Source of the DNA: Betaproteobacteria bacterium
GTDB taxonomy: Bacteria; Pseudomonadota; Gammaproteobacteria; Burkholderiales; SG8-39
Reading direction: 5' to 3'
Assembly (NCBI GenBank): GCA_009693435.1
Contig: SHXF01000071.1
Location: forward strand, 1 to 20,843
Length of the DNA: 20,843 bases
The position numbers were made by a program, and so were the translations under genes. The notes beneath the pieces are model-generated. The model searched no databases. It saw only the letters and a list, made by a program, of their open reading frames with translations, and was not told the origin of the DNA. Shown here one piece after another: positions 1-20,843 of the stretch. Positions within the stretch are counted from its first letter, which is position 1; the number at the start of each line of letters is the position of its first letter.

Positions 1-43
1 GGGACAACGGGCGCGCAAACTGCAACCAACGGAAGGAATGACC

Positions 44-1885
44 ATGGAAATGCCCGACATGCTCGGAGAAATAAGGGACTTGAATCTGACCTATCTGATG
101 CTCGCGCAACAGATGATACGCGATGACAAGTCTGCCGCCGTATATCGCCGCGCCAGCGGCGACCTGCTGGTCGCGCACCGGACGGTGATGCGCGCGGCGA
201 GTGATGCCGGGGATTGGCTGGTGGTGCGCGCACAGCCTGAAAAATCCGGAACATGCCGGGAAGACGATCCCACCCATGCACTCGCCCTGCTGCAGGCCAC
301 GCTGGAGGCTACGGCGGACGGGATACTTCTCCTCGACCGCGATGGCGCCATCCGCAACATGAATCGCCGCTTTGCCGGCATGTGGCGCCTGCCGGAGGCG
401 CTGCTCGCCGCCCGCGACGACAACGCGATTTTCGAATTCATGGCGGGGCTTTTTAGCGATAGCGAGGGCTGTCGGGCGCGCCTGGCGGAAATCGCCCGGG
501 ACGAGGGCCGGGAGACTTGCGATTTCCTCCACCTTGCGGACGGTCGCTCGTTCGAATGCAAGTCCATGCCCGCAGGCAGCGGCACGCAGCTGATCGGACG
601 TGTGTTCTCCTTCACCGACATCACCGGCCGCAAGCGCGCGGAGGCAGCGCGCGCGCTGCTCGAAGCGCAGCTGGCCGAAGCGCAGAAAATGGAAGCGATA
701 GGCACTCTCGCCGGCGGCATCGCGCACGATTTCAACAACATCATCGCTGCCATCCTCGGCAATACCGAGCTGGCGCGCCGGGATGCGAGTGCCAATCCGC
801 AGCTGCTGGATAGCCTGGAAGAAATCCGCAGGGCAGGCAACCGGGGACGCGATCTGGTACGGCAGATCCTCTCGTTCAGCCGCAGGCAGGCAACGGCATT
901 CGCGCCGCTCGCGCTCTGTCCGGTCATAGACGAGTCGGTGCGGTTGCTGCGCGCGACGCTGCCGCTTCGCCTGAAGATAGCCGTTCATTGCGATCCCGAC
1001 GTGCCGGCGGTGCTGGCCGACGCCACCCAGATCGAGCAGGTGGTGCTCAACCTGGCGACCAACGCGATGCAGGCGATGCGCGACTGCGCCGGGCGCATCG
1101 ACATACGACTGGACACGGTCGTAGTGAATGCGGCAATGGCACGGAATTGTCCGGTGCTGCGTGTACTGCACGAAAAGCATCCCGGCCGCACGGTGCGGCT
1201 GACGGTGAGCGACACCGGACCCGGCATGGATGCCGTCACGCTTGCGCGGATATTCGAACCGTTTTTCACCACCAAGGGGAACAACGAAGGCACCGGCCTG
1301 GGGCTGTCGGTGGTACACGGCATCGTGCGCGCGCACCAGGGTGCCATCGACGTGGAGAGCCAGCCCGGCAAAGGGACGAAATTCACGGTCTACCTGCCTG
1401 CAACGGCCCTTCCGGGCTCCGCGGCAAGCCCTGCCGCGGAGCCGGGCGCCATCATGCGCATGCCGGCCGCGATGCCGGCGAAGGACCCGGATCGCAGTCC
1501 GCATATCCTCTATCTCGACGACGATGAGTCGTTGGTGTATCTGGTGCAACGCCTGCTGGAGCGGGGCGGCTACCGCGTCAGCGTCCATACCGACCAGATC
1601 GAGGCGCTGGCTGCCTTGCGCGCCGCTCCCGCTTCATTCGATCTGCTGCTGAGCGATTACAACATGCCGGGCATGTCGGGCCTGGAGGTGGCGCGCGCCG
1701 CGCGCGCCATCCGCGCCGACCTGCCGGTGGCGGTGGCTTCGGGATTCGTCGACGAAACGCTGTCCTCCCAGGCGACCGAAGCCGGCGTTGTCGAATTGAT
1801 TTTCAAGGCCGATGCCGTCGAGGATTTCTGCGCGGTGGTGGCGCGTCTGGTGCAGACGGTGACGATCGCGTGCGAATCCCTCTGA
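44..1885 (+). CDS. FlhD-like domain / PAS / hybrid histidine kinase with C-terminal receiver
   Basis: Predicted cytoplasmic sensor kinase of 613 residues, with no membrane segment visible. Residues 1-60 resemble the N-terminal dimerisation part of FlhD; the stretch LNLTYLMLAQQMIRDDK is the clearest match. A PAS domain follows (about 82-198), then a HisKA domain with GGIAHDFNN and phospho-acceptor His228, an HATPase domain (N-box near 339, DTGPGMD near 390, GTGLGLS near 420), and a receiver (about 486-602) with Asp538 in SDYNMPG. The receiver has LIFK followed by Ala, not the usual Lys-Pro. The ATG at 44 is preferred over the ATG at 38 because GGAAGG (31-36) lies 7 bases upstream of it, and because this numbering aligns without gaps with E. 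coli FlhD as I recall it. The kinase and receiver are paralogous to the gene at 3302. The catalytic residues look intact; the signal and the downstream partner are unknown. Confidence 0.9.
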   Translation: MEMPDMLGEIRDLNLTYLMLAQQMIRDDKSAAVYRRASGDLLVAHRTVMRAASDAGDWLVVRAQPEKSGTCREDDPTHALALLQATLEATADGILLLDRDGAIRNMNRRFAGMWRLPEALLAARDDNAIFEFMAGLFSDSEGCRARLAEIARDEGRETCDFLHLADGRSFECKSMPAGSGTQLIGRVFSFTDITGRKRAEAARALLEAQLAEAQKMEAIGTLAGGIAHDFNNIIAAILGNTELARRDASANPQLLDSLEEIRRAGNRGRDLVRQILSFSRRQATAFAPLALCPVIDESVRLLRATLPLRLKIAVHCDPDVPAVLADATQIEQVVLNLATNAMQAMRDCAGRIDIRLDTVVVNAAMARNCPVLRVLHEKHPGRTVRLTVSDTGPGMDAVTLARIFEPFFTTKGNNEGTGLGLSVVHGIVRAHQGAIDVESQPGKGTKFTVYLPATALPGSAASPAAEPGAIMRMPAAMPAKDPDRSPHILYLDDDESLVYLVQRLLERGGYRVSVHTDQIEALAALRAAPASFDLLLSDYNMPGMSGLEVARAARAIRADLPVAVASGFVDETLSSQATEAGVVELIFKADAVEDFCAVVARLVQTVTIACESL

Positions 1886-1991
1886 AATGCATGGATTCCG
1901 AGGGAGCGATTCCTCGCAGCGATTCGGCCGCCGGCGCGCCGCTCACGCACCGGCTCGGCTGGGATAGCGCGGTGATGTCGTGCCCGCGGCC

Positions 1992-3257
1992 ATGCTGAAA
2001 CGCATCCGTGTCAGTCAACTGCGCCTTGGAATGCACGTCCACGAACTGTGCGGGTCGTGGCTGGAGCATTCCTTCTGGCGCAAGTCGTTCAAACTGGATG
2101 AACGGAATATCCTTGACCGGATTATCGAATCCCATATAGCGGAACTCTGGATAGACGTTGCGCGCGGACTGGATGTCGAAGATGTCGAGGGCGCCGAAAG
2201 TGGCGGGGCCCGGGAAGTGTCCGAGCAGCAGGTCGAGACTTTCATTGCCCATGTGGTCGACAAGAATGTCGCGGTCGCGCCGGCCGTGAAACGCGTTTCG
2301 ATGCGCGAAGAACTGCAGCGCGCCGCCAGAATCTGCGCCGAATCGCGCCTTGTCGTTGCCGGCATGTTCGAGCAGGCGCGCATGGGACAGGCCATCGATG
2401 CCGGCAAGGCCGAGGCGCTGGTGAGCGAAATATCCGCATCGGTGCTGCGCAACCCGGGCGCTCTCATCAGCGTGGCCCGGCTGAAGACGGTGGACGACTA
2501 CACCTTCATGCACTCGGTGGCCGTCTGCGCCCTGATGATTGCGCTGGCGCGCAGACTGGGGCTTTCAGAGGGGGAAACCCGGGAAGCGGGACTCGCGGGC
2601 ATGCTTCACGATGTCGGCAAGATGGCGATCCCGCTGGCCGTGCTGAACAAGCCCGCACGCCTGACCGAGGAGGAATTCACCCTGGTCCAGACCCACCCCG
2701 CCGAGGGTCATGGCATGCTGCTGCGCGGCGGCGGCGCATCGGACATGGCGCTCGACGTATGCCTGCATCACCATGAAAAGATGGACGGCAGCGGTTATCC
2801 GGAGGGACTCGACGGGGGGCAAATCAGCCTGTACGCAAAAATGAGCGCGGTCTGCGATGTGTACGACGCCATCACTTCGGACCGGCCCTACAAGCAGGCC
2901 TGGGATCCGTCCATGGCGTTGCACAAGATGACAGAATGGCGGCAGGGACACTTCGACGAGGCCGTGTTCGCCGCGTTCGTGAAGTGCCTGGGCATCTATC
3001 CCGTGGGCTCGCTGGTGCGGCTGCGATCGGGCCGCCTGGGCGTGGTCGTCGAACAATCGGCGCACACGCTGGTCGAACCGAGGGTAAAGGTTTTCTATTC
3101 CACAAAATCGCGGGCACGCATCGTTCCTGAGATAATAGATATGTCCAAACGCAGCGGGGCTGGCGACAAAGGCGACAATATCGCGTCCCGCGAAGATCCC
3201 GCGCACTGGGGCTTTCCGGATTTGAACGTGCTCTGGCAGTCCGCGGCCGCCCGCTGA
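1992..3257 (+). CDS. HD-GYP cyclic-di-GMP phosphodiesterase with DUF3391 N-terminus
   Basis: Predicted to hydrolyse cyclic-di-GMP and so favour motility over biofilm. Residues 1 to about 130 ([19 protein letters not shown] at the start) match the DUF3391 region found before HD-GYP domains. The HD-GYP domain follows: GMLHDVGK with His206-Asp207, then [15 protein letters not shown] with the GYP at 268-270, then the conserved [13 protein letters not shown]. All expected metal and signature residues are present, so activity is likely. The ATG at 1992 begins exactly where family members begin; an in-frame GTG at 1980 is possible, and neither has a clear ribosome site. The gene lies 106 bases after the FlhD-like kinase and 44 bases before the second kinase, all on one strand, suggesting a shared transcript. 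It is 421 residues, a usual length for the family. Confidence 0.92.
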
Positions 3258-3301: not shown

Positions 3302-6064
3302 ATGCATCTCGATCCCCGCACCCTGATCGTCGTCACCATCCTGAGCGGCCTGCTGCTGAGCGGCGGGCTGATTGCTGTTTCCCGGGGCTATCTCGCGCAG
3401 GTCAGCGGCGTGAAGCGCTGGGCAGCGGCGACGCTGCTGCAGGCGCTGGGATTGATGGTGGTGGGCCCATTGCGCGGGGTCGTGCCAGACTGGCTGTCGA
3501 TCGTGGTCGGCAACGGCCTGGTCCAGATTTCCCTTGCCTGGTATCTGTTCGTGCTGGCGGAATTCAACGACAGGCCGATGCCCCGACTGCCCGCCTACGC
3601 CCTGGTGCTGGCCCAGTGCGCGGGTCTCGCCTGGTTCGCGACCGCGAGTCCCGACCTGGCCGCGCGCATCGTGCTGATTTCGGCCTGCACCGCGACGCTG
3701 ATGCTGGCCTGCGCCCACGTGCTGTGGACCGGCCGTGGCGAGCGCCCGGCGAGTCATGTGCTTACCGCCGCCCTGTTTGCCACGGGCGGAATTTTCAATG
3801 CGGGACGCGGCGCTTATGCCCTGATCCGGCATTCCATGCCGGATCAGGCGCCATTTGCGCCGAGTGCGGTCAACGATGTCGTCTATCTGGCCTACTACGC
3901 CATCGTCATACTGATGACCCTGGGCTTCGTGCTGATGTGCAATGATCGCTATATCGCCGAAAAGGCGCGCGCCGATGAAGCGCTGCGCGAGCGCATGAGT
4001 TTCATCGACATGATCATCGACAACGCGCCCACCCCCCTTGCTTACTGGACAGACGACCTGCGTTGCACCTTTGCCAACGACGGCTACCTCGAATGGTTTG
4101 GCCGCAGCAGGGACCAGATGCAGGGGATCGACATGCAGGCCCTGCTGGGAGACGAACTGTACCGCCTGAACAAGTCCCATATGCGCGCGGCGTTGCAGGG
4201 CGAGGCCCGGCGATTCGAGCGTGCACTGACCCGGCCCGATGGCGTGATCGGCGATTTCCTGGTGCAATACATTCCACATCGTCTGAATGGGCGGGTGGCG
4301 GGCTTTCTTGCGCAACTGACGGACGTTACGGCGATCAAGCGGCGCGAGGAGCAGTTGCGTCTGAGCGATATCGCCCTGAAAGCGGTTTCCCAGGGGGTAG
4401 CCGTGACTGCCCCCAACCTTGCCATACTCTCGGTGAACACCGCATTCGAGGACATCACCGGCTATCGCAGCAGCGAGTTACTGGGGCGATCGTACGAGAT
4501 CATGCATGGCGGGAACACCGATCCGCGAACGCTGGAAACCATGCGGCTTTCCGTCGCCAATGCCGAGGAGTTCTCCGGCGAATTGCTCGATTATCGCAAG
4601 GATGGCTCGACTTTCTGGAATGAAACGACCATTTCGCCGGCATGGGACGATTCGGGCAGGCTGAGTCATTTCGTCTTCGTTGCGCGCGACGTATCCGCAC
4701 GCCGGGACGCTGAATTCGCACGGACATCGCTGGAAACCCGACTGCGGGAATCGCAGGAGAAGGAGGCCGTCGCCTCGCTGCAGGCGCAGTTGCGCGAGTC
4801 GCAGAAGATGGAGGCGTTGGGCACGCTCGCCGGGGGCATCGCGCACGATTTCAACAATGTTCTCGCCACCATTCTGGGTAATGCCGATCTGGCGCGAGCG
4901 GACTCGCAGGGCAGTGCCACGGCGCTGGAAAGTCTTGCAGAAATTCGCAAAGCCGCAACGCGCGCCCGCGATCTGGTGCAGCAGATCCTGTCCTTCAGCC
5001 GCAGGCAGCCCTCCGACCTCAGGCCCACGCTGCTGGCCGATGTCGTCGACGAATCGGTGCGCTTGCTGCGGGCCACGCTGCCGGCGCGAGTGACGCTGAC
5101 GGTGCGCTGCGGCGACGCGGTTCCCGCGGTGCTTGCCGATGCCACCCAGATCCAGCAGGTATTGATCAACCTGGTCACCAACGCCATGCAGGCGCTGCAG
5201 GGCTCACCCGGGCGAATCGGGATTCGTCTCGACGCGGCCGGCCTGGACGATGCGACGGTGCAGGCGCATCCAGTGCTGCGCGGATTCCGCGAGCAGCACT
5301 CCGGCCGGACGGTGCGCCTGGCGGTGAGCGATGACGGCCCCGGCATGGACGCGGCCACGCTGGCACGGATTTTCGAGCCGTTCTTCACCACCAAGCCGGT
5401 GGATGAAGGCACCGGCCTCGGCCTTTCGGTGGTGCATGGCATCGTGCAATCGCACGACGGTGCCATCGTGGTGGACAGCGCAACAGGCGAAGGCGCGACT
5501 TTTACCCTCTGGTTTCCGGCGGCCGTGGATGAGGATATGGCGGCCGGGATCGCCGGCACCGGATCATCCGGCTCCGGCGACGGGCGGAGCGGCGCAACCG
5601 GCGCGCAGGCAATCGCGCCCGACAGCGGCGGTAACAGCGGCCGCGGCCAGCGCATACTGTATCTTGATGACGACGAAGCGATGGTGTTTCTGGTCAAGCG
5701 CCTGCTCGAGCGGCACGGCTATGGTGTCAGCGCCCATACGAACCAGCGCGAGGCGCTGGTTGCGCTGCGCGAGGACCCGGCTTCGTTCGACCTGGTGGTG
5801 ACCGACTACAACATGCCCGGCATGTCCGGGCTGGAGGTGGCGCGCGCCGTGCGCGCCATTCGGGACACGCTGCCGGTGGCGGTGGCCTCCGGGTTTATCG
5901 ACGAAACACTGCGCCGGGAGGCCGAGGGCGCCGGCGTGCGGGAACTGATATTCAAGCCAACGGCAGTGGAGGAGTTCTGCAGGATCGTCGAACAGCTGGC
6001 GCACACGCTGGCGCAGCAACCGGCGCCAGCACGGGACAGCGGTGCACAGTTGACGCCCGGTTGA
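3302..6064 (+). CDS. Membrane PAS-PAS hybrid histidine kinase with C-terminal receiver
   Basis: A 920-residue sensor kinase. Residues 1 to about 220 hold roughly seven hydrophobic segments with short loops, a membrane sensor I cannot assign to a named family. PAS 1 spans about 235-350. PAS 2 (about 355-475) resembles LOV-type PAS sequences near KDGSTFWNE but has GRSYEIMHGG where a photoreceptor would carry the flavin-binding Cys, so light sensing is not supported. HisKA has GGIAHDFNN with His515. The HATPase has SDDGPGMD and GTGLGLS. A Gly/Ser-rich linker (about 745-775) leads to a receiver with Asp835 in TDYNMPG and a Lys-Pro pair. The kinase and receiver halves are clearly paralogous to the gene at 44. 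No output domain is present, so phosphate presumably passes to a separate partner. The start at 3302 has no obvious ribosome site. Confidence 0.93.
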   Translation: MHLDPRTLIVVTILSGLLLSGGLIAVSRGYLAQVSGVKRWAAATLLQALGLMVVGPLRGVVPDWLSIVVGNGLVQISLAWYLFVLAEFNDRPMPRLPAYALVLAQCAGLAWFATASPDLAARIVLISACTATLMLACAHVLWTGRGERPASHVLTAALFATGGIFNAGRGAYALIRHSMPDQAPFAPSAVNDVVYLAYYAIVILMTLGFVLMCNDRYIAEKARADEALRERMSFIDMIIDNAPTPLAYWTDDLRCTFANDGYLEWFGRSRDQMQGIDMQALLGDELYRLNKSHMRAALQGEARRFERALTRPDGVIGDFLVQYIPHRLNGRVAGFLAQLTDVTAIKRREEQLRLSDIALKAVSQGVAVTAPNLAILSVNTAFEDITGYRSSELLGRSYEIMHGGNTDPRTLETMRLSVANAEEFSGELLDYRKDGSTFWNETTISPAWDDSGRLSHFVFVARDVSARRDAEFARTSLETRLRESQEKEAVASLQAQLRESQKMEALGTLAGGIAHDFNNVLATILGNADLARADSQGSATALESLAEIRKAATRARDLVQQILSFSRRQPSDLRPTLLADVVDESVRLLRATLPARVTLTVRCGDAVPAVLADATQIQQVLINLVTNAMQALQGSPGRIGIRLDAAGLDDATVQAHPVLRGFREQHSGRTVRLAVSDDGPGMDAATLARIFEPFFTTKPVDEGTGLGLSVVHGIVQSHDGAIVVDSATGEGATFTLWFPAAVDEDMAAGIAGTGSSGSGDGRSGATGAQAIAPDSGGNSGRGQRILYLDDDEAMVFLVKRLLERHGYGVSAHTNQREALVALREDPASFDLVVTDYNMPGMSGLEVARAVRAIRDTLPVAVASGFIDETLRREAEGAGVRELIFKPTAVEEFCRIVEQLAHTLAQQPAPARDSGAQLTPG

Positions 6065-6115
6065 CGAGTGGCGCAGCCTGAGCCGGCGCGAGCACCTTTT
6101 CCAGAGAAAACCGCA

Positions 6116-7912
6116 ATGCCTTCGACCGCAAGCAAGCCGAGAATCCTGGTAGTCGAGGACGAAGTCATCGTCGCGCGCGATCTGCGCATGAAACTGTTGG
6201 GATTGGGCTACGAACCAGTGGGCCACGTTGCCCGCGGCGAGGAGGCACTGGTCCTCGCCCGGGAGCAACGCCGATCTGGTGCTGATGGATATCCAGCTGG
6301 CCGGCGTCATCGACGGCATCGCCACGGCCCATGCCATTCGCGCTGAATTGCGCCTGCCGGTGGTGTTTCTCACCGCCTATGCCGAAGACGACACCCTGCA
6401 ACGCGCCAAGCTCGCGGAACCCTTCGGCTATGTCCCCACGAACGGGAGTTGCGGACCGTGCTGGAGATGGCGCTGTACAAGCACCGTGCCAACATGCGGA
6501 TACGGCAGAGCGAGGAAAACCTGGCGATCACGCTGCGCTCGATCGGCGACGGGGTGATCGGCAGCGATGCCGCGGGACGAATTGCGCGCATGAATCCGGT
6601 CGCCGCAGCGCTGACCGGCTGGACCGAGTCCGAGACGCTCGGCTTGCCCATAGAAACCGGATTTCACATCGTAAGCGAGCAAACGCGGGCCCCCTCAGTC
6701 AATCCGGTGGCGGCAACACTGACCTACCGCCTCGCGCAGGGACTGGCCAATCCCACCGCGCTCATTGCCCGGGACGGAACCGAGCGGTCCATCGCCGACA
6801 GCTGCGCGCCGATGCGGGACGACACCGGCCGCATCATCGGCGCGGTGCTCGTGTTTTGCGATGTAACCACAGAACACGCGGCGAGGCGCGCACTGCGGGA
6901 GAAGGAGGCGGCGTTGCGCGAAATGAACGACAGCCTCGAGCGAATCGTCTCGGCGCGCACCGGTGAATTGCGCAACAGCGAGAAAAGACTGGAATACGCG
7001 CTTGAAGCCGCCCGCGACGGGCTGTGGGACTGGGATTTCGCAAGCGGGCGCGTCCACTACAGCCAGATCTGGGCGCAATTGCTCGGCTATGCCCCCGAAG
7101 AAGTTCCGCAGCGGGTCGAATTCTTCTTCTCCGTGCTTCATCCGGGGGATATCGATCGCGTCCGGGCATGGATGGACGAACATTTTGCCGGGCGGACGCC
7201 CATCAAGGAAGGCGAAGTGCGCCTGCGCAGGAAGTCCCGCGAGTACCGCTGGTTCCTCGACCGCGGGAAGGTGGTCGCCCGGGATGAGGCCGGCATGCCC
7301 TCGCGCATGGTGGGCACGATTACCGACATCGGCGAATCGAGGCGGCTGCGGATGCATCCTGTATCTGGACGACGACGAGTCGCTGGTGTTCCTGATGAAG
7401 CGCCTGCTGCTGCGCGGCGGCCAGCGCGTCAGTGCGCACGTCAATCAGAATGAAGCGCTGGCGGCGCTGCGCGCGACCCGGCGTCTTTCAGTCTGGTGGT
7501 GACCGACTACAACATGCCGGGCCGCTCTGGCCTGGACATCGCCCGGGAAGTGCATGCCATTCGCGCCGATCTGCCGGTGGTGTTGGCCTCGGGCTTCATC
7601 GACGATGCGCTGCATGCGGCTGCCGCAGCGGCCGGGGTGAAGGATTTGATATTCAAGACCGATGCCGTGGAGGATTTCAGCGCCGTGGTGCAGCGGCTGA
7701 CGGCGACGAATTCACCGGCAAGCTGGGCGGAAGAATCCCGGCACGTGCCGGATAAAGTTCCAGTATCGATACACGAATCGGCCAGAAGGCCGCGTGCTGC
7801 TGCAACATATACGAATTATTCTTCAACAATCAAGGCAGGGGAGAAGGGTTCACGCGACGCGCCAGGGTTCATCTGGCGGCAGCGTCACGCCCCGCCCGCA
7901 GGCGGTGCATGA
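6116..7912 (+). pseudogene. Decayed receiver-PAS-PAS-receiver signalling gene, kinase core missing
   Basis: Coding homology runs through three changes of frame and ends near 7712; the last open frame stops at 7912. The order is: receiver 1 (PRILVVEDEVIVARDLRMK, then in another frame DLVLMDIQLAG), PAS 1 from about 6500, a helical linker near 6890-6960, PAS 2 (EYALEAARDGLWDWDF to GTITDIGESRR), then receiver 2 (ILYLDDDESLVFLMKRLL, VVTDYNMPG). Lesions: a net +1 near 6262-6270; about ten bases lost near 6435-6439, removing the conserved Lys-Pro of receiver 1; a junction near 7345-7353 where PAS 2 passes straight into receiver 2 out of frame; and one base lost near 7470-7475. By comparison with the gene at 3302, about 0.9 kb of HisKA and HATPase is absent at the third lesion. 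Receiver 2 is a third paralogue of the two intact kinases' receivers. Fragments may be translated, but a working kinase is not expected. Confidence 0.85.
7738..7751. other. Perfect 14-base palindrome between convergent genes
   Basis: CCGGCACGTGCCGG reads identically on both strands. It lies just past the end of receiver homology of the decayed plus-strand gene and before the end of the minus-strand HDOD-receiver reading frame. There is no T-tract, so it is not a standard terminator. It could be a binding site or chance in GC-rich DNA. Confidence 0.35.
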
Positions 7913-13144: not shown

Positions 13145-13236
13145 TCCGGCAGCGGCAGTGCCGCAGAGGCGAGCACAGTCACCCTTAATTTCACCAATCG
13201 CTTCCTCGGTGAGGGCTTCGTGCGGTGGATGGAATC

Positions 13237-14337
13237 CTAGGCGGCGAATTTCGTCACGCGATTGCGACCGGCCTGCTTTGCTTCATACATGGCACGATCG
13301 GCGCGAGCGAGCAGCGTATCGATGCTGCGGCCGTCTTCGGGATAACCGGCGACTCCAATGCTGACGCTTGTCATGATCTGCGTGCCGGCCGCTTCCAGCG
13401 GCGTCGCTGCAATGGCGCTGCGTATGCGCTCGGCCACGTCCAGCGCGCCTGCCGCCCCTGTCTCCGGAAGCAGCACCAAAAATTCGTCGCCGCCGTAGCG
13501 GGCCAGCACGTCGGTGTGACGCAGTTCGGTCGCGATGGACTTGGTCACGAGTTTCAGCAGGGCATTCCCCGCTTCATGGCCATGCGTGTCATTGACCATC
13601 TTGAGGTTGTCCGAATCGATCATCAACAGGCTCGCCGGGCGGTTATAGCGCACCGATTGGGCAAACAGCCGGTCCACAGCGATGGCAAATCCCCTGCGGT
13701 TGTAGACACCCGTGAGATCATCCGTTTCGGACAGCAATTTGGCCCGGTTGAGGCCGTACCGTATGTCCGCGGAAAACATGGTGGTGACGTAGGCGACCAG
13801 CAACATGGGAGCGAGCTGGGCGGCCAGCCCGCCGACAAACGCGAGGCTCAGCAATTCGCGCGCGGAGGTATTGTCGCCGAGCAGAATGAAACAGGCCGCC
13901 ACCAGCGCGACTTCGAACAGGGTGACGATCTTCCCCAGGGTGAGCGCACTGGTGATGATGACCAGCAGATAGGCATTGAGCAGCGGACTGGCCAGCCTGC
14001 CCGTAAACCAGGCCGCCCAGGTGATGAAGATGATCATCGCCCATGTTTCCAGCGCAATCTTTCCGCGGGAAACGGTCTTGTAGAACTGGATGAAATGAAA
14101 CGAAAGCACAAAGGCGGCGTAGAAAAACAGCGCCATGCCGATGGCGGCCCTGGCATCTGCCGCGGGACCTTCGAACACCTGGTACAGCAGCACGAGGATG
14201 AGCAGCAGCCACTCAATTTCCGCAACCGTGCGTGAAATACCGCGCAGTTCCTCTTGCTCGATGGTGAATTTTTCGTCGACCTGTGCAGTCAAAGCCTCTC
14301 CCAGGGTTACATGCAAGGCGGCTTTTCGGGGCCGCAC
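13237..14337 (-). CDS. Membrane-bound GGDEF diguanylate cyclase
   Basis: Predicted to make cyclic-di-GMP from two GTP at the inner membrane. The N-terminal half has about six hydrophobic segments (roughly residues 40-190) forming an unassigned membrane sensor. The GGDEF domain fills the C-terminal half: DDLTGVYNRRGF, DSDNLKMVNDTHGH, an intact GGDEF at 282-286, and an inhibitory I-site RHTD five residues before it (273-276). Both catalysis and product inhibition are therefore expected. The start is uncertain. A GTG at 14337 has AGAAGG 9 bases upstream and is preferred; a TTG at 14400 would add 21 Arg-rich residues that do not look coding. It converges on ftsB and opposes the HD-GYP enzyme at the left of the window in function. 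Confidence 0.9.
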   Translation of the reverse strand: MRPRKAALHVTLGEALTAQVDEKFTIEQEELRGISRTVAEIEWLLLILVLLYQVFEGPAADARAAIGMALFFYAAFVLSFHFIQFYKTVSRGKIALETWAMIIFITWAAWFTGRLASPLLNAYLLVIITSALTLGKIVTLFEVALVAACFILLGDNTSARELLSLAFVGGLAAQLAPMLLVAYVTTMFSADIRYGLNRAKLLSETDDLTGVYNRRGFAIAVDRLFAQSVRYNRPASLLMIDSDNLKMVNDTHGHEAGNALLKLVTKSIATELRHTDVLARYGGDEFLVLLPETGAAGALDVAERIRSAIAATPLEAAGTQIMTSVSIGVAGYPEDGRSIDTLLARADRAMYEAKQAGRNRVTKFAA

Positions 14338-18616: not shown

Positions 18617-18996
18617 CTACACGCTCAACACTCGCAACAGCAGCGTCGCCTGTGCCGCCGGGATGGTCGCCGACACCATGAACAGCGCGGAGGACACAAG
18701 CACCGTCCAGCCTGCGAAAAACCCGAGTGTATGGTTGAACACACGGCTGACCCATGCGTATGACGCTCCGGCATTGGCATCCACCCGGTTGAGGTGCATG
18801 TAGGCGAATGCGATCCCGAACATGACAGGCCGCAATACAGCAGGCTTGCAGGCGCGAGCAGACCCACTGCGGCGATCAGTGTCGCGATTGTTGCTGCGAT
18901 GCTGTAAGAAGGTGCGGTACCTGCGACACCGATAATCACCGAGTGGGCAAGGCCCAGGGCGTCTTTCTCCAGGCTCCGCCCTTGAGGAAACGGCAC
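18617..18996 (-). pseudogene. APC-family amino acid permease, N-terminal fragment with frameshift
   Basis: From a GTG at 18996 (AAGGGG four bases upstream) the frame encodes the first two membrane segments of an APC permease: ALGLAHSVIIGVAGTAPSYS, then IAAVGLLAPASLLYCG. Near 18830 the homology jumps to another frame, consistent with one missing base, and continues as MFGIAFAYMHLNRVDANAG, SYAWVSRVFNHTLGFFAGW and SALFMVSATIPA, ending at a stop at 18617. Such permeases have about 12 segments and over 450 residues, so roughly three quarters of the gene is gone, and the decarboxylase-family gene begins 35 bases further on. It lies 23 bases after the second Bug receptor gene on the same strand, so the two were probably one transcript. 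Not expected to work. Confidence 0.82.
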
Positions 18997-19019
18997 ATCG
19001 CCCCTTGTTAGGTGTTTCC

Positions 19020-19997
19020 TCAATCTGCCCTGGCACCCGACGCGCGAATTACGCCGCCCCAGCGTTCGCGCTCCTGCGCCATGAATGCCGACATCTCGGC
19101 CGGCGTGCTGCCGATTGCCGTGGTGCTGCGACTGGACAACTGTTCCACTACATCGGCTAGCTTCATCACCTCGGCGACGGCACCGGCAAGCCGGTTCACC
19201 AGCGCAGGCGGTGTGCCTGCCGGGGCAACGATTCCGTTCCAGGTGGCGGCCGCATACCCGGGCAGCACCTCTGCCACTGCAGGCACGCCCGGTAGCAGCG
19301 GATGGCGCTTCTCGCTGCCGATGCCAAGTACCTTCAGACGACCCGCGCGGATATGCTGGAACACTGTGCCCAGGTCGAAGAACACCATGTCGACCTGTCC
19401 GCCTATGAGGTCGGTAAGGCCGGTGGCCAGGACCTTGTATGGAACATGCACCACCTTCACGCCGGCCATGGACTTGAACAGTTCCGCTGCGAGGTGAAGC
19501 GTGCTGCCGCTGCCTGCCGAAGCGTAGTTGAGCCGGTCCGGGTTGGCTTTTGCATAGGCTATCAGCTGCTGCAAACTTTCCGCTGCCTGCTTTGGCGGCA
19601 CGACCAGAACAAGGGGCGTGGAGGAGACCAGCGACACCGGCACGAATCCGTCCGGATCGTAGTTGAGTCTGGCATACAGGGTCTTGTTGATCACCAGCGG
19701 CGGCGGTGGGGTGTACAAAAGGGTGTAGCCGTCCGGACTGGCCTTGGCAACGTATTCCGCTCCGATATTCAGGCCGGCACCAGCGCGATTGTCGACGACA
19801 ACAGGCTGCCCCCACTTTGCCTGGAGCTTTTCCGCAACCAGCCTCGCGATCGAGTCCACGCCGGTGCCTGGTGCGGACGGAACCACGAATTTGATTGCCC
19901 TCGCGGGGTAGTCCTGCGCGCCGGCTAACGTCGCCGAAACCAGCGCAGAGACAATCAACATTCCGCCGGAAATTTTCCTGGTGATAGCGGCAATCAC
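19020..19997 (-). CDS. Bug/TctC-family periplasmic solute-binding protein
   Basis: A 325-residue receptor of the same family as the gene at 16765 but a divergent member. The GTG at 19997 has GGGAGGA 8 bases upstream. A signal peptide ends near LAGAQ, followed by DYPARAIKFVVPSAPGTGVD, SPDGYTLLYTPPPP, the GSGSTLHLAAELF segment, VVHVPYKVLATGLTDLIGGQ and LLPGVPAVAEVLPGY. The frame is intact. It is the first gene of a minus-strand group that continues into the broken APC permease fragment. No transporter membrane subunits are nearby, so this is a second orphan receptor; the ligand is unknown. Confidence 0.93.
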   Translation of the reverse strand: MIAAITRKISGGMLIVSALVSATLAGAQDYPARAIKFVVPSAPGTGVDSIARLVAEKLQAKWGQPVVVDNRAGAGLNIGAEYVAKASPDGYTLLYTPPPPLVINKTLYARLNYDPDGFVPVSLVSSTPLVLVVPPKQAAESLQQLIAYAKANPDRLNYASAGSGSTLHLAAELFKSMAGVKVVHVPYKVLATGLTDLIGGQVDMVFFDLGTVFQHIRAGRLKVLGIGSEKRHPLLPGVPAVAEVLPGYAAATWNGIVAPAGTPPALVNRLAGAVAEVMKLADVVEQLSSRSTTAIGSTPAEMSAFMAQERERWGGVIRASGARAD

Positions 19998-20304
19998 GGT
20001 GGCATTCCTCCCTGGTCAGCATGGGCACGCGGCATTCGCACACCCGATGTAGGCGTGGCCGCAGCATACCGGACCCTACGGTCCTGTGCCGACACTCCAC
20101 CCGTCCCCTGCGGCCTGTGACTTTCGCCCCGGGGAGGGCTGAATGATCTTCCCTAGCCTGCGTTGCGCGCTCCGCTTTCGGCGGCGAGGGTATAGTGCCA
20201 TGGTGTTGACGCGAACTCGGACTGGTGGGGCGATGCGCTGTCACGCCCGCGGTCCGAGGTGGGCGCACGCTGCGTGCGACCGCAATCTCCGGGACCCAAC
20301 GTAA
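19998..20304. other. Divergent intergenic region
   Basis: About 300 bases separate the second Bug receptor gene from the methyltransferase gene. I see no coding homology and no firm promoter. It contains a short GGACC-CTAC-GGTCC hairpin near 20072-20085, a possible TATAGT box near 20191 without a well-spaced -35, and a 14-base string (CCTGCGTTGCGCGC, 20157-20170) identical to one at 16702-16715 at the foot of the stem-loop there. Confidence 0.5.
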
Positions 20305-20730
20305 ATGTTCACCAAATCGAAGCCGCGCGAAAGGTCGCTTTACAATCTGTTTCTGCTCAACCAGGGCAGGGACCTGGACAAGTGGCATCACTACTTCAAT
20401 ATCTACGAGCGATTCTTTGCCCCGCTGCGCGGCCGGCCGCTGAAGATTCTAGAGATAGGGGTGTACCTCGGTGGCTCGCTTCGCATGTGGCGCGACTATT
20501 TCGGCGAGTCAGCGCAGATCGTGGGCATAGACAAGAACCCGGCCTGCGCGGAATTTGCAGGGGAGGGCGTGACGATACGCATCGGCCACCAGGCGGACCG
20601 GGAATTTCTTGCGCAGGTGAAGGCAGAGGCGGGTGGTTTCGACATCGTGATCGACGACGGCAGCCACATCGGGGCGCATCAGATAGCCTCCTTCGAGGGA
20701 ATGGCACTTACTTTAGGTTCGCAGCGATAG
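20305..20730 (+). pseudogene. Class I SAM-dependent methyltransferase, truncated
   Basis: The first 133 residues or so match the N-terminal half of a class I methyltransferase of the kind found near cephalosporin-hydroxylase-like and sugar-modifying genes. They include SLYNLFLLNQGRDLDKWHHY, the SAM motif ILEIGVYLGGSLRMW, the acidic ribose-binding residue in GIDKN, and FDIVIDDGSHIGAHQIASFE. After FEGM the expected continuation (a strand and Lys-Pro-Gly-Gly turn) is replaced by unrelated residues and a stop at 20730. The break point, near 20703, coincides with the start of sequence that looks like the left end of an insertion element. The SAM-binding half is present but the substrate half is lost. 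The substrate is unknown. Confidence 0.75.
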
Positions 20731-20843
20731 AAGCGGCGGTGTAAGTGTTTGAATAGGCAGGGGTGGCCGACCCAAGGATTGATAGGATGGTTGTTAGCAG
20801 ACAGCCAAACCATCGCCCCGAAAGGCCAGCCATGACGGATCGT
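20704..20843 (+). mobile_element. Putative left end of an insertion element
   Basis: The methyltransferase homology stops at about 20703. The following DNA contains an inverted pair CACTTAC (20705-20711) and GTAAGTG (20741-20747), a second inverted pair GATGGTT (20786-20792) and AACCATC (20808-20814), and then GAAAGG six bases before an ATG at 20832 that stays open to the window edge (only four codons). This layout fits an insertion element with a short leader before its transposase, but the family cannot be named and the right end is outside the window. A plain deletion junction next to an unrelated gene is the main alternative. Confidence 0.4.

What the first reader, a model, noticed from the sequence alone, without database searches (positions are those of the whole stretch)
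44..235. FlhD-like segment fused to the front of a hybrid histidine kinase
Residues 1-60 of this kinase align without gaps, from the first residue, with the start of E. coli FlhD as I recall it. I count 15 identities over residues 7-35, including Asp12, Asn14, Leu15, Tyr17, Ala21-Gln22 and Asp28-Lys29. FlhD is the master flagellar regulator and this part forms its dimer. I know of no described FlhD-kinase fusion. It could let a sensor kinase dimerise with FlhD or bind FlhC, tying phosphorelay state to flagellar gene control. The adjacent HD-GYP enzyme, which lowers c-di-GMP, fits a motility role.
Basis: partly seen in the sequence, partly recalled or inferred. Interest (0 to 1): 0.78.

Follow-up and report, generated by a model that had tools for sequence, protein, structure and literature searches.

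The report
FlhD gene start stuck to kinase
The front of this sensor kinase really is the first 35 residues of the flagellar regulator FlhD, but it looks like a one-off breakpoint (an assembly error or a recent DNA break) near the end of the sequence rather than an evolved FlhD-kinase signalling protein.

Summary
The FlhD resemblance is real: residues 1-35 match Pfam FlhD at 44 bits (cut-off 27) and equal a free-standing 105-aa FlhD, P0121, at 35 of 35 residues, then 4 of 40. Bases 1-43 also match the flhD leader of close relatives. From residue 34-36 on, the protein is an ordinary hybrid kinase that has lost its own start and most of its first PAS domain. The halves meet at a short word, TATCGC(C), bases 143-149. 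I found no second FlhD-kinase protein. The flhD part fills only the first ~149 bases, and the right end stops ~146 bases into an IS4-family element, so the window looks like a whole short-read contig. Best reading: a young microhomology breakpoint without selected function. Assembly chimera (about 0.48) and real recent rearrangement (about 0.42) cannot be separated here: the identical protein is listed on two contigs, one of 74,063 bases, which I could not open. A functional FlhD-kinase device is unlikely (about 0.05): only FlhD's first 35 residues are present, modelled with low confidence.

The parts
1..43 (+). 5' leader of flhD (with GGAAGG at 31-36)
   Evidence: Local alignment to 98 nt upstream of flhD: 0 of 1000 shuffles reach the score for L001 and L003, 2 for L002, 1 for L004; L005-L008 not significant (202-787 of 1000), L009 21 of 1000; leaders of two intact kinases do not match (L104 747, L089 149 of 1000)
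44..148 (+). codons 1-35 of flhD (about helix alpha-1 of FlhD; helix limits recalled)
   Evidence: PF05247 44.1 bits; 35 of 35 residues equal to FlhD P0121; 79-83 of 105 bases equal to flhD of G001-G004
143..149 (+). junction; TATCGC(C) shared by flhD and, by inference, the kinase's lost native sequence (microhomology)
   Evidence: flhD of L001, L002 and L004 reads TATCGCC here, L003 TATCGTC; kinase relatives have Tyr-Arg or Tyr-Leu at this column; the kinase's own native DNA at this point was not available
149..1885 (+). hybrid histidine kinase lacking its own start and most of its first PAS domain
   Evidence: HisKA, HATPase_c, Response_reg, PAS_7; relatives have an N-terminal PAS here
305..643 (+). 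PAS_7 domain (second PAS)
   Evidence: residues 88-200
701..892 (+). HisKA domain
   Evidence: residues 220-283
1019..1405 (+). HATPase_c domain
   Evidence: residues 326-454
1505..1834 (+). response-regulator receiver domain
   Evidence: residues 488-597
20698..20843 (+). left end of an IS4-family element at the window's right edge (first base 20698 or 20699)
   Evidence: 71% identity over window 20699-20843 to an IS4-family element in two Acidovorax carolinensis plasmids; terminal inverted repeat found by comparing that element's two ends

Best explanation
A breakpoint, not an evolved domain fusion. The leader, start codon and first 35 codons of a normal flhD gene are joined, through a shared word of about 6-7 bases (TATCGC/C), to a hybrid histidine kinase whose own first ~80 codons and promoter are missing. 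The join happens to be in frame. Shown: the two origins, the abrupt edge, the missing PAS part, and no relative with the same order among those searched. Inferred: that the join is young (35 of 35 residues identical to a free FlhD) and unselected; the length of the shared word; that the window is a complete contig. I lean slightly to a library or assembly chimera at the contig end (about 0.48) over a real recent rearrangement in the cell (about 0.42). If real, its first effect would be promoter capture: a sensor-truncated kinase made from flhD's own leader and ribosome-binding site.
For: Profile match confined to FlhD positions 1-35 of 102. 35 of 35, then 4 of 40 residues shared with P0121. 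Upstream 43 bases are flhD leader. In L001-L004 flhD sits about 100 bases after a response-regulator-like gene and before mot- and cheY-like genes; an flhC-like ORF directly downstream was listed for L002 and L004 (my ORF picker listed overlapping reverse-strand ORFs there in L001 and L003; gene names mine). Kinase similarity starts at residue 34-36; in the family genomes no listed kinase match begins before residue 32 (15 of 98 genomes matched, mostly 13 candidates scored per genome). No other kinase-length protein carries the segment (1 of 175 candidates, the window's own). Left end: 148-149 bases of flhD; right end: 145-146 bases of an IS4-family element, as expected when a short-read contig stops at both sides inside sequence seen elsewhere.
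Against: The join is in frame without a stop (about 1 in 6 by chance, and only such cases get noticed). The identical 613-aa protein is listed on two contigs, the longest 74,063 bases, so it may have been assembled more than once. On the kinase side the contig passes the junction, whereas a rare chimeric read should have lost to the native upstream sequence. The neighbouring kinase-like locus 6061-7912 is itself frameshifted and deleted, which fits real decay of this cluster.
Confidence: 0.88

Rival explanations
1. Assembly or library chimera: chimeric molecules, or a mis-join, linked the kinase contig to flhD at TATCGC(C), and the contig then ended in flhD because native flhD reads branch there.
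For: The foreign part is only the first ~149 bases, about one short read or k-mer; the other end stops a similar ~146 bases into an IS. Abrupt join at a short shared word. A native FlhD with the same 35 residues exists on another contig (P0121). The flhD start is not seen as a repeat in relatives: four of nine genomes searched with bases 1-149 matched, once each (weak, since it missed flhD of G002 and G003).
Against: Identical protein listed on two contigs, one of 74,063 bases. The contig shows only the flhD version upstream of the kinase. Seven shared bases alone should not mislead a k-mer assembler; chimeric molecules would be needed.
Confidence: 0.48
2. Real recent rearrangement: a deletion, duplication or inversion joined the flhD start to a kinase gene in a decaying kinase cluster, perhaps with promoter capture; no conserved function.
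For: Open frame with HisKA, HATPase_c and receiver domains above cut-off. The neighbouring kinase-like locus 6061-7912 shows frameshifts and a lost HisKA/HATPase part. Identical protein on two contigs. A same-family kinase lies about 2.4 kb upstream of flhD in L004, so such genes can be neighbours.
Against: No relative found shares it. The junction lies at the window edge. In G001 the kinases near pyrG and the flhD locus lie on different contigs.
Confidence: 0.42
3. Functional FlhD-kinase fusion: the FlhD segment lets the kinase pair with FlhD or bind FlhC and so couples phosphorelay state to flagellar genes.
For: FlhD helices alpha-1 and alpha-4 form the YdiV interface and part of an FlhD-FlhD contact in FlhD4C2 (PMC3510510, passages seen); an HD-GYP-type gene follows.
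Against: Only residues 1-35 are present; the rest of the core, with the dimer cysteine, is not. No recurrence found. Part of a PAS domain is left behind. The N-terminus is modelled at block pLDDT 37-61, not as an FlhD fold.
Confidence: 0.05

Closest known systems
FlhD (PF05247), flagellar master regulator subunit; nearest P0121, 105 aa
   Same: Residues 1-35 (35 of 35 with P0121); leader matches that of flhD in L001-L004
   Different: Residues 36-105 are absent, including the dimer-cysteine region and the C-terminal part; the next gene is HD-GYP-type, not flhC
Hybrid histidine kinases P0002-P0012 (55-67% identical over 67-98% of the query; P0010, 779 aa, and P0009, 705 aa, are longer)
   Same: Everything from residue ~34 on, including HisKA, HATPase_c and receiver domains
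   Different: The relatives start with a PAS domain (about 80 residues before the point of similarity); the window's protein has 35 FlhD residues in its place

Membership tests
FlhD (PF05247) | Significant profile match | tested here: met
   44.1 bits, cut-off 27
FlhD (PF05247) | Match over the whole ~102-position domain (dimer core and C-terminus) | tested here: not met
   Only positions 1-35; residues 36-75 share 4 of 40 with P0121
FlhD (PF05247) | flhC directly downstream, as in L002 and L004 | tested here: not met
   Next gene is a DUF3391/HD_5 protein; an flhC-like ORF follows flhD in L002 and L004 (named by me)
FlhD (PF05247) | Dimerises and binds FlhC | not tested
   No homodimer or FlhD/FlhC complex was predicted; binding itself needs the bench
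Hybrid histidine kinase | HisKA, HATPase_c and receiver domains above cut-off | tested here: met
   44.8, 91.1 and 58.9 bits
Kinase subgroup of P0002-P0012 | N-terminal PAS domain | tested here: not met
   Start replaced; homology begins at residue 34-36. Pfam finds the PAS in P0002 above its cut-off, in P0005 and P0011 below it
FlhD-kinase fusion as a recurring architecture | Same order in at least one other protein or genome | tested here: not met
   1 of 175 candidates, own; 1 of the 120 kinases listed, own; largest open frame listed with an FlhD match 284 aa (one search did not list all matches)

The most novel reading that the evidence does not exclude
In some cells of this betaproteobacterial lineage the flhD leader and first 35 codons really were copied onto a sensor-truncated hybrid kinase, placing it under the flagellar master promoter and giving it an exposed FlhD helix that competes for FlhD or for a YdiV-like antagonist: a just-born flagellar feedback kinase.
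Probability: 0.04. Interest if true: 0.6.

Novelty: not a real feature. Interest (0 to 1): 0.15.

Why it matters
As it stands, mainly a caution: an excellent domain match at the very start of a contig can be the tail of another gene, and a profile hit limited to 35 of 102 positions together with a homologous leader gives it away. I mark novelty 'not a real feature' because the domain fusion as claimed is not borne out. If the join were shown in long reads it would be a new variant of a known kind: a very young chimeric gene with promoter capture, caught before selection acted. A functional FlhD-kinase link would be new to me (recall). One full-text search for FlhD + histidine kinase + fusion + domain architecture gave 12 papers; none of the 10 titles listed names such a fusion (listing only).

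Tried and rejected
Considered and dropped: (1) chance helical resemblance: excluded. (2) An old, conserved FlhD-kinase domain order: no second case found. (3) Foreign origin of the flhD piece: FlhD, PyrG, KdsA and Eno distances to G001-G004 show no usable discord (P0121 stood in for the window's FlhD; G004's FlhD is divergent from all). (4) The flhD start as a repeated element in relatives: four of nine genomes matched, once each; G002 and G003, which do have flhD, were missed at that cut-off, so this test is weak. (5) Junction word in IMG/VR viral contigs: none; in the 134 fetched loci: none. FlhD alignment A1 in viral contigs: no relative. (6) IS end in ten relative genomes: none. (7) Plasmid search of the window: 16 records, patches over eno, kdsA, the pyrG region and PAS kinases. 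(8) Paper searches seen as listings; one paper was opened for passages, one search was not used. (9) HD-GYP-type gene in nine relatives: found in four (57-60% identity); of no help with the junction.

Limits: protein searches need shared 5-residue words and a length window, so remote fusions could be missed. One search scored at most 13 candidates per genome. One search did not list all its matches. The genome sets overlap (for example G002, G117, G151, G194). The 'contigs' column is read by me as counting contigs with the identical protein. AlphaFold alignment A2 mixed kinases and FlhDs, which misaligns their N-termini.

Full report
What was claimed and what holds. The resemblance is real: PF05247 44.1 bits against a cut-off of 27, confined to protein residues 1-35 and profile positions 1-35 of 102; 15 identities with E. 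coli FlhD (PDB 1g8e) inside residues 7-35. It does not extend to residue 60.

Where the segment comes from. A search of short proteins with residues 1-75 returned 47 of 48 candidates at E <= 1. All 47 carry the precomputed Pfam FlhD label; 46 are 105-114 aa and one is 51 aa. The best, P0121, is identical over residues 1-35 (35 of 35); the next best shares 32 of 35. Over residues 36-75 P0121 shares 4 of 40. So the piece is not a diverged domain but the start of an ordinary FlhD. Bases 1-43 also belong to flhD: they align with the region just upstream of flhD in L001 and L003 better than any of 1000 shuffles, and in L002 and L004 only 2 and 1 of 1000 shuffles do as well. The more distant L005-L008 show nothing, L009 is borderline (21 of 1000), and the leaders of two intact kinases do not match. 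Everything in the window up to base 148 or 149 is therefore flhD DNA.

Where the kinase begins. Among 29 relatives aligned (chosen from the 120 listed), those with a full start carry about 80 residues before the point where window similarity starts; two of them (P0015, P0029) have shorter predicted starts. Agreement with the window protein rises at residues 34-40: 84 of 145 cells identical in 36-40 and 55 of 145 in 31-35, against 3 and 2 of 145 in 21-25 and 26-30. Scattered higher counts before that (53 of 141 in 1-5, 28 and 22 of 145 in 11-15 and 16-20) come from the shared start methionine and forced alignment, as I read it. Pfam finds the N-terminal PAS in P0002 at 27-108, and below its cut-off in P0011 at 17-95 and P0005 at 17-54; the window protein keeps only the end of this domain. 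In the family survey 15 of 98 genomes had a kinase match at E <= 1e-100 and no listed match begins before residue 32 (at most 13 candidates scored per genome).

The junction. flhD in L001, L002 and L004 reads TATCGCC then T (L003: TATCGTC); the window reads TATCGCC then G, and the kinase relatives have Tyr-Arg or Tyr-Leu at this column. A shared word of 6-7 bases at the join is therefore likely; the native kinase DNA of this organism was not available, so its length is inferred.

No second case. Kinase-length proteins with this segment: 1 of 175 candidates, the window's own. Of the 120 kinases listed (7,995 of 7,996 scored passed 1e-20), only the window's own has it; the best other ungapped match is 9 of 30. 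FlhD profile over genomes: 140 of 399 genomes of the order matched, 138 above the cut-off, the largest open frame listed being 284 aa (some matches not listed); 17 of 369 of the class matched, 10 above the cut-off, frames up to 170 aa. The two genome draws overlap.

The window's ends. The last ~146 bases are the left end of an IS4-family element: match to two Acidovorax plasmids, inverted repeat found by comparing that element's two ends. The first ~149 bases are flhD. Both overhangs are about one short read or large k-mer, which suggests that the window is a whole contig that stopped inside sequence also present elsewhere. That makes a chimeric end plausible, but equally a genuine second copy of the flhD start. 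Against a pure artefact, the identical protein is listed on two contigs, one of 74,063 bases, and the contig continues through the junction on the kinase side. I could not open that contig, so I hold the two nearly equal.

Surroundings. Downstream lie an HD-GYP-type protein with DUF3391 (1980-3257), a second hybrid kinase (3302-6064), and a third kinase-like locus (6061-7912) that is frameshifted and has lost its HisKA/HATPase part, then pyrG, kdsA and eno. PyrG is 78-86% identical in G001-G004. In G001 two hybrid kinases lie upstream of pyrG on the same contig; no FlhD match over 90 bits was printed there and the printed starts of their frames do not look like FlhD. Its flhD lies on another contig among flagellar and chemotaxis-like genes (names mine). 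In L004 a related kinase lies about 2.4 kb upstream of flhD on the same strand. Decay of the kinase cluster thus looks real, unless the third locus reflects sequence errors; the neighbouring genes that I translated (HD-GYP-type, second kinase, pyrG, kdsA, eno) are open frames.

Would it work as FlhD? In the YdiV-FlhD crystal FlhD residues 1-81 were built, dimers are linked at Cys65, and helices 1 and 4 form the YdiV interface (PMC3510510, passages seen). The window has residues 1-35 only, about helix 1 (helix limits recalled). The AlphaFold model of the whole protein from a mixed 27-row alignment has mean pLDDT 76.8 and pTM 0.38; residues 1-40 score 37-61 in blocks of ten; helix 6-27 is followed by strands 31-35, 41-53 and 56-65, which I read as PAS-like. 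No fold search was run on this model. A working FlhD interface is unlikely but not excluded, as no complex was modelled.

Verdict. True homology, wrong extent, and no support for the signalling idea: a breakpoint, probably unselected. Chimera and recent rearrangement need reads to separate.

Noticed in passing
window 6061-7912: Third hybrid-kinase-like locus in tandem, apparently a pseudogene: receiver and PAS pieces in shifting frames, PAS joined to a receiver with HisKA and HATPase missing. Could also be sequence error.
   Followed up: partly
window 20305-20727: Methyltransferase-like ORF (PF13578, 21.8 bits, below cut-off 26.3) that runs into the IS4-family element at about 20698.
   Followed up: partly
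G026 contig C293:41691-42033: flhD of this relative matches P0121 in two pieces (residues 1-41 and 44-104) with 37 bases between, as if interrupted or frameshifted.
   Followed up: no
L004:4470-7631: A 1053-aa hybrid kinase of the same family lies upstream of a response-regulator-like gene and flhD; L001-L003 also have that response-regulator-like gene about 100 bases before flhD. A possible flhD-linked signalling gene.
   Followed up: no
window 18625-20391 (-) and 13225-14232 (+): Long ORFs of 588 and 336 aa without a Pfam match at E <= 0.01; possibly not genes.
   Followed up: no
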